Positions 29,528 through 35,527 of a DNA stretch of 35,527 bases are shown piece by piece (within the stretch, counting starts at the first letter, position 1; each line of letters begins with the position of its first letter). Source of the stretch: Terrisporobacter sp. (GTDB lineage Bacteria; Bacillota; Clostridia; Peptostreptococcales; Peptostreptococcaceae); assembly GCF_017888745.1 (NCBI RefSeq), contig NZ_JAGHFM010000076.1, positions 1-35,527 on the forward strand. The letters are read 5' to 3'. The position numbers were made by a program, and so were the translations under genes. The notes under the pieces were generated by a model. The model saw nothing but the letters and a program-made list of their open reading frames with translations, had not been told where the DNA came from and ran no database searches.

Positions 29528-29793
29528 ATGACAATAAATAATTACACTAAATTAGAAAATTATCAATGGAAGTAATTTATAAATAAAGAACATGTAAATT
29601 TAAAATTAAAAATGAAATATGTCAAGTTATGCAATAATACATAAAATAATGTATAATATTGAATTTTAATGAAATAAAATATATAAAATTAAATATTTTG
29701 ACAATTCATGTATATATTTACAACATAATTAATAATTGATAATCTTATATATATAGTCCAGTATAGAAGTGTTCAAAATACTGGAGGTTTAAT
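29528..29793. other. AT-rich gap between acsV and the His-rich peptide gene
   Basis: No credible gene here; a 15-codon ORF at 29528 has no ribosome binding site. There is a TTGACA at 29698-29703 without a good -10 at the right distance, and a TATAAT at 29652-29657 with a poor -35. AATAATTGATAATC near 29731-29744 resembles half of a metal-regulator (Fur-like) site but is not a convincing full match. The promoter for the metal-handling genes should lie here. Confidence 0.4.
29758..29784 (+). promoter_or_regulatory. Hairpin abutting the ribosome binding site of the His/Cys-rich peptide
   Basis: CCAGTAT (29758-29764) and ATACTGG (29778-29784) are exact reverse complements with a 13-nt loop. The last two Gs of the 3' arm are the first two of the GGAGG site (29783-29787) for the 45-aa peptide. 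The fold could partly mask translation start. A functional role is inference. Confidence 0.45.
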
Positions 29794-29931
29794 ATGCTAA
29801 GAAGGAGTTTAATGAAACATCATAATCCACATATAGGTGGATGCTGCGGTAATGGTGGAGAAAACTGCTGTGGGAGCTATGACCATGAAGAACACATACA
29901 TCCATATGATCATGTTCACATTCATGCATAA
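29794..29931 (+). CDS. Small His/Cys-rich putative metal-binding peptide, 45 aa
   Basis: This ORF is too short for the supplied track. It encodes 45 aa with nine His and four Cys. A GGCCGNGGENCCG core with two CC pairs is followed by a C-terminal HEEHIHPYDHVHIHA tail, an obvious transition-metal binding composition. ATG 29794 has GGAGG six bases upstream. An in-frame ATG at 29812 has its own AAGGAG, giving a 39-aa form, so either or both may be used. No signal peptide or membrane helix is present. It precedes an ABC metal-importer operon and shares DHVH with the ATPase tail and the 104-aa protein. Ni storage, delivery or sensing is inferred. Confidence 0.75.
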   Translation: MLRRSLMKHHNPHIGGCCGNGGENCCGSYDHEEHIHPYDHVHIHA

Positions 29932-29964
29932 TAATTAAATAAGATAATCATAACTATAACCATG

Positions 29965-30020
29965 AAGGTTTATGTATTATAGATTTGTTATATCTATACA
30001 TATATAAACCTTTTATTTTT
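29965..30020 (+). terminator. Terminator/attenuator between the small peptide gene and the ABC operon
   Basis: AAGGTTTAT (29965-29973) pairs with ATAAACCTT near 30004-30012, with an inner ATAGAT/TATCTAT helix and a T-rich tail (TTATTTTTT). It lies between the 45-aa gene and the lipoprotein gene. With only about 50 bp left before the next start, and no clear promoter in it, partial read-through into the importer genes is plausible. Confidence 0.65.
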
Positions 30021-30073
30021 TATAAAATAAATTATATAAATTACAAAAAGTATTTTACAGGGGGAATTAATCA

Positions 30074-31099
30074 ATGTTAAAAAGTAAAGGTTTAAGAAGG
30101 GTATTAGCACTATTATCTATAGTAGGGGTAACTTTAAGTTTTGTTGGATGTTCAAATGACAATCAAAAATCTGAAACAACAAAAACAAAAGCAGAAGCAA
30201 GTAACTTTGAACCAGTAGAATTTACATATTCTGATGGAGCTAAAGATTATGATGTAAAAGTTGATAAACCTAGACAAAAAGCAGTTACATTATCCCAGTT
30301 TATGACGGAAATGTTATTGGCATTAGATTTAGGTGATAAAATGGTGGGGACAGCGCTTTTAGATAATCCAATACTTCCAGAATTTGAAGAAGCATACAAT
30401 AAAATACCAGAGTTAGAAGTAGGTGAAGGCCACTCAATATCAAAAGAAGGATTTATGGCTACAGGGGCTGACTTTGTCAGTGGATGGGATTCATCAATAA
30501 GTGAGCAGACAACAGGATCACCAGAGGAGCTTATAAAAAATGATATAACTCCATTTATGGCAAAGTCTTATTCACCAGATGCAACAGTTGAAACAGTATA
30601 CGAAGATTTTGAATTATTAGGAAAAATATTTGGAGTAGAAGATAAAGCTACAGAAGTAATAAATAAAATGAAAAGTGATATAAAAGAAGTAAGTAACAAA
30701 TTAGGTGATATAAAAGAAGAAGATAGAGTAAAAATGATGGTATATGACTCAGGGGAAAAGGATGCCATGGTAGTTGGTTCTGGTCTTGCTAATAACTTAA
30801 TAGATTTAGCTGGAGGGAATAATATATTTGGAAAAGACGCTGAAAAGCCTTATATAAATGTATCTTGGGAAAGTATAGTAGCTGAAAATCCAGAGGTTAT
30901 ATTAGTAACTGACTTTATGGCTGGACAACCAGCACAAGAAAAAATAGATTTCTTAAAGTCTCATCCTGCTCTTAAAGATGTAGCAGCAATAAAAAATGAT
31001 AAAATATATGTTGTAGGATTAGCAGATTTATCTCCAGGTGTTAGAAATCCTAAGCTTATAGAGAAAATGTATGGATATTTCTATGGAGAAAATAAATAA
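30074..31099 (+). CDS. ABC transporter substrate-binding lipoprotein (metal/metal-chelate type)
   Basis: This 341-aa TroA/FepB-like periplasmic-binding-fold lipoprotein has a signal peptide with lipobox VGCSN (Cys26 lipidated), followed by a Lys/Glu/Thr-rich tether. The binding domain has KAVTLSQFMTEMLLALDLGDKMVG at the front and ENPEVILVTD and KIYVVGLADLSPGVRN near the end. This fold serves siderophore, cobalamin, heme and also nickel/cobalt chelate uptake. Sequence alone does not fix the ligand. Location beside CODH/ACS and His-rich nickel-type proteins favours nickel. The stop overlaps the permease start (TAATG). Confidence 0.88.
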   Translation: MLKSKGLRRVLALLSIVGVTLSFVGCSNDNQKSETTKTKAEASNFEPVEFTYSDGAKDYDVKVDKPRQKAVTLSQFMTEMLLALDLGDKMVGTALLDNPILPEFEEAYNKIPELEVGEGHSISKEGFMATGADFVSGWDSSISEQTTGSPEELIKNDITPFMAKSYSPDATVETVYEDFELLGKIFGVEDKATEVINKMKSDIKEVSNKLGDIKEEDRVKMMVYDSGEKDAMVVGSGLANNLIDLAGGNNIFGKDAEKPYINVSWESIVAENPEVILVTDFMAGQPAQEKIDFLKSHPALKDVAAIKNDKIYVVGLADLSPGVRNPKLIEKMYGYFYGENK

Positions 31100-32181
31100 T
31101 GGATATATCAGTACAAGAAAAAAGAGGCCTTTCTAAAAAGAAAGGTTTCCTATTTTGGACAGTATTACTTATTATATTATTAGCTATTACGGTAGTATCA
31201 GCAATAGCAATAGGTAGCACATATATACCTCCTGGAGAAGTTTATAAAGTACTACTAAGTAAATTATCAAATGGAATGCTATTTGGTGATGTGGGAACTA
31301 TAATGACACAAAATATAATATGGGAAATAAGATTTCCAAGAGTGTTATTAGGGGCAATGTGTGGCGCTGGTCTTGCGCTTTGTGGAGTACTTATGCAATG
31401 TGTAACTAAAAATCCAATAGCAGAGCCTTATATATTAGGTATATCATCAGGGGCATCTTGTGGTGCTGTAGCAGTTATAGTTTTAGGTGGAATATCTACT
31501 ATGGGAATAAATAGCATAAGTACAGGTGCTTTTGTAGGTTCAATAATATCAGGAGTTCTTGTATTTGCAATAGGAACTCAAATGGGGAAGACAACTTCTA
31601 CTACGAGGTTAGTACTTACAGGTATGGCAATATCTACAATATTTTCAGCTCTTACTAATTTACTTATATATTCTGCAGATAATTCAAATCAAGCTAAAAA
31701 TGCATTATTTTGGACAGTAGGTAGTTTAGGTGGAGCGAAATGGGATGTACTATTATTACCTTTTATAGTATTAATAATAGTAATTATAGCCTCATTTATG
31801 ATGTCTAAATCTCTAGATATATTACTTTTAGGTGATGATAGTGCAATAATACTAGGAATAAATGTAAAGCTTATTAAGTCAATAATACTTATTTTAGCAA
31901 CTTTACTTACATCCTCTTTAGTTGCAATAACAGGAGCTATAGGATTTATAGGTTTAGTAGTACCACATGTATGCAGAACTATAGCAGGAAGTGACCACAA
32001 AAAATTAATAGTACCCTCATCATTAATAGGGGCAATATTTTTGATAATATCAGATATTTTTGCAAGAGGGCTTTTCCCGCCAATAGAAATACCTATAGGA
32101 ATCATAACATCATTAGTTGGTGGACCATTCTTCTTATATTTAATTTCTAAGAAAAATTATGCTTTTGGAGGAAAAGAGTAA
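31099..32181 (+). CDS. FecCD-family ABC transporter permease
   Basis: This 360-aa membrane protein of the FecCD/BtuC type has about nine to ten hydrophobic helices. Typical features are RFPRVLLGAMCGAGLALCGVLMQ in the first third, EPYILGISSGASCGA, and GAIGFIGLVVPHVCR before the coupling-helix region. It would import the ligand of the adjacent lipoprotein, probably as a homodimer. Both ends overlap neighbours by TAATG (start with lipoprotein stop, stop with ATPase start), showing a tight operon. Confidence 0.92.
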   Translation: MDISVQEKRGLSKKKGFLFWTVLLIILLAITVVSAIAIGSTYIPPGEVYKVLLSKLSNGMLFGDVGTIMTQNIIWEIRFPRVLLGAMCGAGLALCGVLMQCVTKNPIAEPYILGISSGASCGAVAVIVLGGISTMGINSISTGAFVGSIISGVLVFAIGTQMGKTTSTTRLVLTGMAISTIFSALTNLLIYSADNSNQAKNALFWTVGSLGGAKWDVLLLPFIVLIIVIIASFMMSKSLDILLLGDDSAIILGINVKLIKSIILILATLLTSSLVAITGAIGFIGLVVPHVCRTIAGSDHKKLIVPSSLIGAIFLIISDIFARGLFPPIEIPIGIITSLVGGPFFLYLISKKNYAFGGKE

Positions 32182-33032
32182 TGCATAAAATTCAAGTAAA
32201 AAATTTAAGATTTAGCATAGATAAGAATGAAATATTAAAAGATATATCTTTTAATGTTCCTAAGGGAAGTTTTGTAGGTATTATTGGACCTAATGGATCT
32301 GGAAAATCAACTTTATTAAAAAATATATATAGACTATATAAACCATCAAGTGGACAAATTATATTAGATAATAAAGACTTAATTCACATGAAAGATAAAG
32401 ATTGTGCAAAAGAAACTGCAGTACTTGCTCAAGAAAGTGATTCTCAATTTGACTTTACTGTAGAGCAAATAGTAAAAATGGGAAGATATCCGTATAAATC
32501 TATATTTGAAGATTACTCAAAGGAAGATCTGAATATGGTTTCAGATATGCTAAAAAAGGTTGGGCTGGACAATTATATCCATAGAAGTTTTTCAAATTTA
32601 TCTGGAGGAGAGAAGCAAAGAACTTTAATTGCGAGGGCTCTTGTACAAAATACGGATTTTCTAATATTAGATGAACCTACAAATCACTTAGATATAGGAT
32701 AGCAAATACAATTAATGGATCTAGTAAAAAGTTTAAATATAACTACGTTATCTGCTATACATGATATGAATATAGCCTCTATGTATTGTGACTATTTAAT
32801 AGTTATGAAAAAAGGGGAGATAATTGATTTTGGAAAGGTTGAAGAAGTAATAACTTCAGCTATGTTAAAAGATGTTTTTGGAGTAAATGCTTATATAGGT
32901 GTTAATCCTATAAATAAAAAACTACAAGTATCATTTATGCATACTCATGAACATATAAATGGTATTGGAGAAGATCATGTGCACGAAGATGGATTTACAG
33001 GTTTTCATAGTCATCAACATATTTGTTTATAA
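32181..33032 (+). pseudogene. ABC transporter ATPase interrupted by an in-frame TAG
   Basis: One reading frame of 283 positions encodes a FecE/BtuD-type ATPase but contains TAG at 32700-32702 (codon 174). The first part has Walker A GPNGSGKST, a Q-loop AQES, signature LSGGEKQR and Walker B LILDEPTNHLD. After the stop the same frame goes straight on with QIQLMDLVK and the H-loop AIHDMN. The break therefore lies between the D-loop and the switch His, so the 173-aa product alone should be inactive. Family members usually have a Tyr there (LDIxYQ), one base away from TAG. Inactivation, nonsense suppression or a sequence error are all possible. TAG is an ordinary stop elsewhere here (argS, fhs). 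Confidence 0.85.
32703..33032 (+). pseudogene. C-terminal part of the interrupted ATPase, with a His-rich metal-binding tail
   Basis: This is the downstream 109 codons of the same frame. It carries the H-loop AIHDMNIASMYCDY, the DLIVM-like strand and a C-terminal extension not usual for this ATPase family: MHTHEHINGIGEDHVHED and then FHSHQHICL, with eight His and one Cys. The first Met (32715) has no ribosome binding site, so separate translation is unlikely. The tail resembles those of the 45-aa and 104-aa proteins (DHVH) and suggests binding of the transported metal on the cytoplasmic side. Confidence 0.75.
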
Positions 33033-33253: not shown

Positions 33254-33445
33254 ATGTGTGAATCATCTGCATTTGTATTAGGTAAAGATAATAATTTGCA
33301 AAAAGTAATGGAAAATGTAGTAACTGTAGACCCGGCTGATGGGAAAGTATATTTAACAGATTTATTAGGGGACCAAAAAATAATAGATGGTTATATTAAA
33401 GAAATAAGGTTAATGGATCATAAAATAATATTAGCTCAAGAATAA
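33254..33445 (+). CDS. cooT: CooT family nickel-binding protein
   Basis: This 63-aa protein begins MCESSAF and fits the CooT family: short, an N-terminal Met-Cys whose Cys2 is the known nickel ligand, and a small beta-barrel-like sequence (KVYLTDLLGDQKIIDGYIKEI). CooT homologues accompany CODH in CO-oxidising and acetogenic bacteria and bind Ni(II). It starts at ATG after AAGGGGGAT. It heads a three-gene unit with the DUF3842 gene 24 bp downstream. The family call is by pattern and context; exact affinity or role in CODH maturation is not shown by sequence. Confidence 0.8.
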   Translation: MCESSAFVLGKDNNLQKVMENVVTVDPADGKVYLTDLLGDQKIIDGYIKEIRLMDHKIILAQE

Positions 33446-33899: not shown

Positions 33900-34214
33900 A
33901 TGTTAAATAAAAATATAGCTTTATTCCATGAGGGGCATCATCACCATCATGATCATGTACATACTGATTGTGGATGTGGGGGAAGTTGCGGACATGCTCA
34001 TGAAGAAGATCAAATGAGCAAAGATGAAAAAACTTTAAATATATTATTAGTTCATTGGGTGAATCATAACGAGTCTCATGAAGAAGGATTTAGAGAATGG
34101 GTGTCTAAAGCTAAAGAAATGGGAAAAGAAGAATCAGCAGAATATATTGAAAAAGCAATAGAAGCTATGCAAAAAGCTAACGAAATGTTATTAGAAGCTA
34201 AGAAGCATATGTAA
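33900..34214 (+). CDS. His-rich putative metal-binding protein, 104 aa
   Basis: This 104-aa protein has two parts. The N-terminal ~40 residues are a metal-binding stretch with HEGHHHHHDHVH, DCGCGGSCGHAHEE. The C-terminal ~60 residues form a helical domain (LNILLVHWVNHNESHEEGFREW, then a Lys/Glu/Ala-rich amphipathic helix pair). There is no signal peptide, so it is probably cytoplasmic. It is the last gene of the cooT unit, 13 bp after the DUF3842 stop, with AAGGGGGAT before ATG, and a terminator follows. Nickel storage or transfer to CODH/ACS maturation is inferred; binding of Co or Zn is possible. Confidence 0.8.
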   Translation: MLNKNIALFHEGHHHHHDHVHTDCGCGGSCGHAHEEDQMSKDEKTLNILLVHWVNHNESHEEGFREWVSKAKEMGKEESAEYIEKAIEAMQKANEMLLEAKKHM

Positions 34215-34544: not shown

Positions 34545-34587
34545 GGAATTTATAATTTATCTGGTTTGTGGATAAATTATAAATTCC
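34545..34587. repeat. Perfect 17-bp inverted repeat upstream of the ClC gene
   Basis: GGAATTTATAATTTATC (34545-34561) and its exact reverse complement (34571-34587) flank a 9-nt spacer. No T-run follows, so it is not an ordinary terminator. It lies about 80 bp before the chloride channel start and could be an operator or an mRNA hairpin. Confidence 0.8.
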
Positions 34588-34664
34588 AACCTATTATCTT
34601 AAGCAACGGACGAAGTCGTTGGCGATATGAGAGAAGCGAATTTTTTTATGCAAGGAGGGGGAAG

Positions 34665-35459
34665 ATGGATAAAAAAGGTGATAGAGTATATAACATGTTA
34701 AAAAGATTAGAAAATCTTAAATATAAGTTAATACTAGATTCTTTATTAGTAGGAGCGTCAGTAGGTTTTGTAATTGTATTCCATCGAATCATATTATCAA
34801 GCTTAAGTCATAAGTTTACTAATTTTTATGAAAAAGCAAGTAGTAATTATTTATTAATACCAATAATTTTTTCAGTACTTATACTATTAGGATACATAGT
34901 TGGAAAAATGGTGAAAAAAGAACCAATGATTAGTGGTAGTGGTATTCCACAAGTTACAGGAGTTTTGACTAGGAACTTAAAACAGAATTGGTTTAGTGTA
35001 CTATTTTACAAATTTGTTGGAGGATTAATTTGTTTAGTAGCAGGTCTTTCTTTAGGGCGAGAGGGCCCTTCTGTTCAAATGGGTGCTTGTATTGGAGAAG
35101 GTATTTCTGAAAAAACTAATAAATTAGATAATGAAAAGAAATATTTAATAACAAGCGGATCTAGTGCAGGACTGTCTGCAGCATTCAATGCCCCAATATC
35201 GGGGGTGATGTTTTCTCTAGAGGAAACCCATAAAAATTTTTCGCCATTAGTTTTAGTATCGGCTATGATAGCCTCGCTTACAGCTGACTTTATTTCAAAA
35301 AATTTCTTTGGATTGACTCCATCATTGTATTTTCCAAAGCTTAATTCATTACCACTTAAATATTATTGGGGACTTATATTATTAGGAATTATAATAGGGA
35401 TAAGTGGAGTAATATATTGCAAAGGATTATTAAAACACAAAACTTATACACAAAAATAA
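34665..35459 (+). CDS. ClC-family chloride channel/exchanger, frameshifted and partial
   Basis: This membrane protein has the ClC signature motifs GSGIPQ, GREGPSVQMG (with the gating Glu) and SAAFNAPISGVMFSLEE, so it is a chloride-type ClC rather than the fluoride-specific subtype. The first 264 aa are read here; family members are about 400-500 aa. The track start at 34566 is unlikely: ATG 34665 has AAGGAGGGGG just upstream. At 35451-35459 the frame hits TAA, but the overlapping frame from 35456 continues with a plausible ClC sequence to the window end. A single A missing from the short A-run would explain it. Mutation, slippage or sequence error cannot be told apart here. Confidence 0.85.
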   Translation: MDKKGDRVYNMLKRLENLKYKLILDSLLVGASVGFVIVFHRIILSSLSHKFTNFYEKASSNYLLIPIIFSVLILLGYIVGKMVKKEPMISGSGIPQVTGVLTRNLKQNWFSVLFYKFVGGLICLVAGLSLGREGPSVQMGACIGEGISEKTNKLDNEKKYLITSGSSAGLSAAFNAPISGVMFSLEETHKNFSPLVLVSAMIASLTADFISKNFFGLTPSLYFPKLNSLPLKYYWGLILLGIIIGISGVIYCKGLLKHKTYTQK

Positions 35460-35527
35460 ATTTATCAACAGAGATAAAGTGTATTATACCTTTTGTGATA
35501 ACAGGTATAATGGGGATAACGTTACCT
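35456..35527 (+). pseudogene. Out-of-frame continuation of the ClC gene
   Basis: Read from 35456 (a -1 shift from the upstream frame), the sequence is open to the window end. It encodes INLSTEIKCIIPF followed by VITGIMGITLP, a segment of the kind expected next in a ClC protein. It has no start codon or ribosome binding site of its own, so it is the remainder of the upstream gene, cut by the window edge. Confidence 0.6.

What the first reader, a model, noticed from the sequence alone, without database searches (positions are those of the whole stretch)
29794..29931. Unlisted 45-aa peptide with nine His and four Cys
It is absent from the ORF track but has two in-frame ATG codons, each with its own ribosome binding site (GGAGG and AAGGAG), two CC pairs and an alternating H-x-H tail. 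Such density is very unlikely in random AT-rich DNA. It could be a metal buffer, a chaperone for the importer or CooC, or a leader peptide whose translation senses metal.
Basis: partly seen in the sequence, partly recalled or inferred. Interest (0 to 1): 0.7.

Follow-up and report, generated by a model that had tools for sequence, protein, structure and literature searches.

The report
Shortened histidine-rich nickel-operon protein
The 45-residue peptide is a real gene: a shortened copy of an unnamed histidine- and cysteine-rich protein that about a third of the sampled relatives carry, usually just before a probable nickel importer, and next to it lies a conserved RNA hairpin that also precedes other nickel-uptake genes and is not in the RNA family database.

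Summary
The ORF at 29794-29931 encodes 45 aa with 9 His and 4 Cys; only 1 of 5000 shuffles of the intergenic region does as well. It is a gene, not noise. Twenty-one other genomes of the family (22 of 71 with the window) encode homologues, 84-94 aa long, with HHNPH-x2-GCCG-GG-CCG plus an H-x-H tail. These evolve under purifying selection (dN/dS about 0.06-0.19). The family is absent from Pfam, NCBIfam, PHROGs and PDB sequences. In 13 genomes it is the gene before the FecCD-type importer, as here, and the importer ATPase carries the same His-rich module. The window copy lacks about 44 residues of tail and its operon shows decay (stop in the ATPase gene; three sister species have lost the ORF). 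A leader-peptide role is unlikely: seven genomes of one genus keep the protein without the importer, and others keep importer and hairpin without the protein. Best reading: a cytosolic metal (nickel) buffer or chaperone; metal binding is not shown. Unexpected find: a CCAUGAAG/CUUCAUGG terminator-like hairpin between peptide and importer also sits just upstream of NikA-type importers, FmdE, and methyltransferase plus ECF genes, in genomes lacking NikR.

The parts
29794..29931 (+). 45-aa His/Cys-rich protein, shortened member of a HHNPH-GCCG-CCG-(HxH)n family
29783..29787 (+). Shine-Dalgarno GGAGG for the conserved first ATG
29760..29773 (+). 5'UTR hairpin (AGUAU-AGAA-GUGUU), counterpart of the covarying GGGGUAC-UGAA-GUAUCU hairpin of the homologues; weak (wobble) in the window and in competition with a longer predicted hairpin 29758-29784 that overlaps the SD
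29960..30021 (+). Terminator-like hairpin plus U-tract between peptide and importer; 5' arm keeps CCATGAAGGTTT, 3' arm CTTCATGG lost in the window and replaced by AAACCTT pairing
30074..31099 (+). Importer substrate-binding lipoprotein (Peripla_BP_2)
31099..32181 (+). FecCD-family permease
32181..33032 (+). Importer ATPase, interrupted by an in-frame TAG at 32700-32702 (a Tyr codon in three compared relatives); C-terminal His-rich module 32931-33020 homologous to the middle of the full-length peptide family
33254..33445 (+). CooT (nickel-binding CODH accessory protein family)
33900..34214 (+). Second His-rich protein, 104 aa, conserved in relatives, no family match; stands directly before the importer in G052/G053

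Best explanation
The ORF is a genuine gene for a small cytosolic (no signal peptide seen) metal-binding protein, most likely a nickel buffer/chaperone, and the first gene of the importer operon next to the CODH/ACS cluster. Inferred mechanism: the HHNPH motif, the CC...CC cluster and the H-x-H tail bind Ni(II) brought in by the adjacent FecCD-type importer, hold it in an exchangeable, non-toxic form, and pass it towards the nickel users (CODH/ACS, CooC, CooT). The same His-rich module on the importer ATPase could take part in hand-off or feedback. The hairpin between peptide gene and importer would let the buffer be made without the importer (termination) or together with it (read-through). 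Shown: gene reality, conservation, synteny, module sharing, purifying selection in the family. Inferred: metal binding, identity of the metal, direction of regulation. In the window species the protein is shortened by about 44 residues and the operon shows decay, so this copy may have reduced function.
For: Homologues of 84-94 aa in 21 other genomes of the family, 22 of 71 with the window; HHNPH, GCCG and CCG all kept in the 45-aa copy. dN/dS 0.06-0.19 in homologue pairs, changes mostly at third codon positions. Gene lies directly before the same importer in 13 genomes. ATPase tail matches HMM columns about 41-75 of the family in more than 20 genomes. Neighbourhood: CODH/ACS genes, CooT, RACo, DUF3842, another His-rich protein. 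Nickel link: the hairpin before this importer also precedes NikA-type importers whose binding protein L110 has as a top, full-length PDB-sequence match the Yersinia nickel-binding protein YntA (4ofl, 1e-112); CooT and CooJ are nickel-binding CODH accessories (PMC6006190). [quoted passage not shown]
Against: No binding or expression data. His/Cys ligands could equally hold Zn, Co or Cu. The importer's substrate is itself inferred: its SBP has only weak similarity to a solved nickel/iron binding protein (4ino, 4e-4) and fits no curated NCBIfam model above cut-off. In G068 the homologue stands before an HlyD-type gene, not an importer.
Confidence: 0.65

Rival explanations
1. The window copy is a decaying remnant: the family is functional elsewhere, but this 45-aa version is on its way to loss together with its importer.
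For: Half the length of all homologues; three sister species of the genus (G001-G003) keep only non-coding or out-of-frame remnants; importer ATPase has an in-frame stop; hairpin 3' arm has drifted; G004/G005 gave no importer SBP match at 1e-50.
Against: Frame, start, SD, stop, HHNPH, all four Cys and the HIHA end are kept; the loss is consistent with a clean in-frame deletion; most differences from the nearest homologue L157 are at third codon positions (7, 6, 19; dN 0.18, dS 1.27), though not in every comparison (L152: 10, 10, 14). The ATPase stop could be a sequencing error (a nearby CLC gene also looks frame-shifted).
Confidence: 0.4
2. Leader peptide: translation of the His/Cys-rich ORF senses metal (or His supply) and controls the downstream terminator-like hairpin and so the importer.
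For: ORF lies upstream of a terminator-like hairpin and the importer; the stop-to-hairpin gap is short in several homologues (about 40-55 nt by eye), with no separate promoter established between them.
Against: The protein is 84-94 aa and under amino-acid-level constraint well away from the hairpin. Seven g4 genomes keep it with no importer and no 3' hairpin arm. The hairpin at other nickel genes has no such ORF before it, and importer plus hairpin persist without an intact peptide in G001-G003, G035, G052 and G060.
Confidence: 0.07
3. Zinc, cobalt or copper buffer (metallothionein-like) rather than nickel.
For: CC pairs and His are generic soft/borderline ligands; Hpn proteins also bind Zn, Co, Cu and Bi in vitro (PMC4671568).
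Against: Genomic context and the shared hairpin regulon point to nickel uptake.
Confidence: 0.2
4. Chance ORF.
For: Short and missing from length-filtered ORF lists.
Against: 1 of 5000 shuffles; conserved protein family.
Confidence: 0.01

Closest known systems
Hpn / Hpn-2 (Hpn-like) of gastric Helicobacter
   Same: Small proteins very rich in His; Hpn has a measured role in nickel sequestration and trafficking (PMC4671568).
   Different: No sequence-family relation was found or tested; this family has a CC-GG-CC cluster and HHNPH start, lies in an importer/CODH operon in Firmicutes, and shares a module with the importer ATPase.
CooJ / CooT, CODH nickel accessory proteins
   Same: Nickel-linked small proteins encoded with CODH; CooJ has a His-rich domain and binds 4 Ni per monomer (PMC6006190). 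A CooT homologue is 3.3 kb downstream.
   Different: CooJ is 12.6 kDa with a C-terminal His-rich domain of 16 His; this family is 84-94 aa (45 here), with the CC cluster near the N-terminus and no database match.
NiCo riboswitch and other metal riboswitches (for the hairpin)
   Same: An RNA element in leaders of metal-transport genes.
   Different: No Rfam family matches the hairpin even at E<=1; it is a single short stem with conserved sequence and variable loop, before uptake genes.
NikR nickel regulon
   Same: Controls nickel import operons.
   Different: NikR_C is found in 2 of 71 genomes (weak), neither with a hairpin hit; the spacing between hairpin arms varies from 8 to about 48 nt, unlike a fixed DNA operator.

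Membership tests
Hpn/Hpn-2 | Sequence relatedness to Helicobacter Hpn | not tested
   No Hpn sequence was compared; no Pfam, NCBIfam or PHROG match.
Hpn/Hpn-2 | High-capacity Ni(II) binding | not testable with these tools
   Needs biochemistry.
Hpn/Hpn-2 | Very high His content in a small protein | tested here: met
   26-28 His in 84-90 aa in most homologues; 9 in 45 in the window.
CooJ | Encoded with CODH accessory genes | tested here: met
   CooT and CODH/ACS genes adjacent in the window.
CooJ | About 12.6 kDa with C-terminal His-rich domain and a solved-structure relative | tested here: not met
   84-94 aa (45 in the window); no PDB sequence match for the homologue at E<=1.
Amino-acid leader-peptide attenuator | Short leader ORF needed in cis for control of the downstream terminator | tested here: not met
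   Protein kept without importer in seven g4 genomes; hairpin and importer kept without protein elsewhere.
Known Rfam RNA element (hairpin) | Match to a curated covariance model | tested here: not met
   No match at the hairpin in 13 loci at E<=1.

The most novel reading that the evidence does not exclude
The CCAUGAAG...CUUCAUGG hairpin plus U-tract is an undescribed nickel-responsive RNA attenuator that controls nickel-uptake genes (FecCD importer, NikA-type importers, FmdE, methyltransferase plus ECF S component) in Peptostreptococcaceae and some other Clostridia that lack NikR. The His/Cys-rich protein is encoded upstream of it in the importer transcript, so nickel buffer and nickel importer are made in a switchable ratio. 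Its conserved UGAAG string, also in the loop region of the covarying 5'UTR hairpin, would be the recognition element of an unknown RNA-binding regulator.
Probability: 0.35. Interest if true: 0.8.

Novelty: new variant of a known kind. Interest (0 to 1): 0.58.

Why it matters
It identifies an unnamed family of probable nickel-handling proteins tied to the Wood-Ljungdahl CODH system. It also points to a candidate RNA switch for nickel uptake in clostridia without NikR, where how nickel import is controlled is an open question (PMC2667541 noted that fewer than half of NikABCDE organisms have NikR). Both are testable in tractable species with simple reporter and knockout work.

Tried and rejected
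tblastn-style search with the 45-aa peptide found nothing in the five other genomes of its genus; homologues appeared only by looking upstream of the importer and then with an HMM. Pfam's weak hit to a coronavirus spike tail (0.027) is a Cys-rich composition artefact. No hit in plasmids, PHROGs or PDB. Literature searches on His-rich nickel proteins with C. difficile or Terrisporobacter found no description of this family. NikR-type operator considered for the hairpin and rejected: spacing too variable and NikR nearly absent. A fixed promoter-to-hairpin distance was tested and not found. Weak covariance-model hits such as the hisZ leader (GCCATGTAGG, loci L116/L124/L128) look like ordinary terminators.

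Full report
Check of the observation. Nine His, four Cys, two CC pairs and both ATG/SD pairs are present. In 5000 dinucleotide shuffles of the 621-base, 20% GC intergenic region, one produced an ORF of at least 30 aa with 13 or more His+Cys; shuffling the ORF itself gave none.

It is a conserved gene. The genome's family was searched for relatives of the downstream binding protein, and the DNA upstream of each match was read. In 13 genomes the gene immediately upstream encodes an 84-90 aa His-rich protein with the same start. An HMM of these finds 22 of 71 family genomes with the N-terminal motif, the window included. Named sources include Romboutsia, Paraclostridium, Faecalimicrobium and [Eubacterium] tenue. 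In the closest homologue pairs most changes fall at third codon positions, and dN/dS is about 0.06-0.19. No Pfam, NCBIfam, PHROG or PDB sequence matches.

The window copy is short. Aligned to homologues it keeps HHNPH, GCCG, GGENCCG and the C-terminal HIHA but lacks about 44 residues of the H-x-H tail. That missing part is homologous to the C-terminal tail of the importer ATPase (HEHxNGxGxDHxHEDGFTGxHSH). In the window the ATPase frame is broken by TAG at 32700-32702, a Tyr codon in three compared relatives. In three same-genus genomes (G001-G003) the importer is intact but the peptide gene is reduced to remnants. So the operon seems to be degrading in this genus, and the 45-aa form may be on that path; an alternative is a still-working minimal form. 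A neighbouring CLC-channel gene also appears frame-shifted near 35440-35460, so sequencing error cannot be excluded for the ATPase stop.

Leader peptide or protein? Importer genes persist without an intact peptide gene in G001-G003, G035, G052, G053 and G060. Constraint is at the amino-acid level over the whole length. A stand-alone protein is therefore far more likely than a cis-acting leader.

Hairpin downstream. Between peptide and importer lies a stem with CCATGAAG / CTTCATGG arms, a variable loop and a T-rich tail, seen in the loci with a full-length peptide and also in loci that lack it, such as L004-L006, L008, L013 and L018 (not seen in L007). The pattern occurs in 16 of 71 family genomes by exact match, with no match for the reversed control pattern. 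A covariance model (9 pairs; the closing pair switches G-C to A-U) finds 44 of 71 genomes, up to 10 matches each, counting some sites on both strands. Of 57 site readings in fetched loci, some of them second-strand readings of palindromic hairpins and the reference proteins being drawn from these same loci, about 40 lie just upstream of a FecCD importer, a NikA-type importer, FmdE, or methyltransferase plus ECF S component. The NikA-type protein of L110 matches the Yersinia nickel-binding protein YntA at 1e-112; NCBIfam matches to nikA/nikB/nikC are all below the curated cut-offs. The element also precedes NikA-like genes in two other families of the class. It has no Rfam match. NikR_C is found in only 2 of 71 genomes, neither of which has a hairpin match. 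A few sites follow His-rich or importer genes without an uptake gene downstream (L041, L047, L048), so some may be plain terminators. In the window the 3' arm has drifted but a strong hairpin with a U-tract remains (z -2.25).

Hairpin upstream. Just before the SD, many homologues carry a short hairpin with a GAA-containing loop (GGGGUAC-UGAA-GUAUCU); base pairs covary (score 0.532 against 0.323 in shuffles and at most 0.198 when slid). The sequences for that count were picked by eye and two loci (G059, G061) do not fit well, so this is suggestive.

Mechanism. Best supported: a cytosolic nickel buffer or chaperone made with the importer (and, if the hairpin terminates, in excess of it), feeding CODH/ACS maturation. 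Known analogues are Hpn (PMC4671568) and CooJ/CooT (PMC6006190). Steps shown: gene, conservation, synteny, module sharing, constraint. Steps inferred: metal binding, nickel as the metal, regulation by the hairpin.

Noticed in passing
window 32181-33032: Importer ATPase gene interrupted by in-frame TAG at 32700-32702; the same codon is Tyr in three compared relatives.
   Followed up: yes
window 33900-34214: A second His-rich protein (104 aa, GHHHHHDHVHTDCGCGGSCGHAH then a conserved DEKTLxILLxHW...helical part), no family match, conserved next to CooT/DUF3842 in relatives and directly before the importer in G052/G053.
   Followed up: partly
window 34566-35527: Voltage-gated chloride channel gene appears frame-shifted near 35440-35460: a second frame continues with a CLC-like end.
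   Followed up: no
L146, L164-L169: Genus g4 (probably Clostridioides) carries a free-standing 90-aa homologue (in L146 between an ileS end and TetR/DegV-like genes), followed by a lone CCATGAAGGTTT without its 3' arm.
   Followed up: partly
L038, L050, L059, L091-L095, L104, L105: Class I methyltransferase plus ECF S component ('FLPMHIPV') share the nickel hairpin leader; a possible unrecognised nickel-chelate uptake system.
   Followed up: partly
L042, L044, L101, L109: FmdE genes carry the same hairpin leader, in L101 followed by a NikA-like binding protein.
   Followed up: partly
window 29789-29929 (-): Opposite-strand 46-aa His-rich ORF; likely a mirror of the CAT/ATG-rich coding strand.
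   Followed up: no
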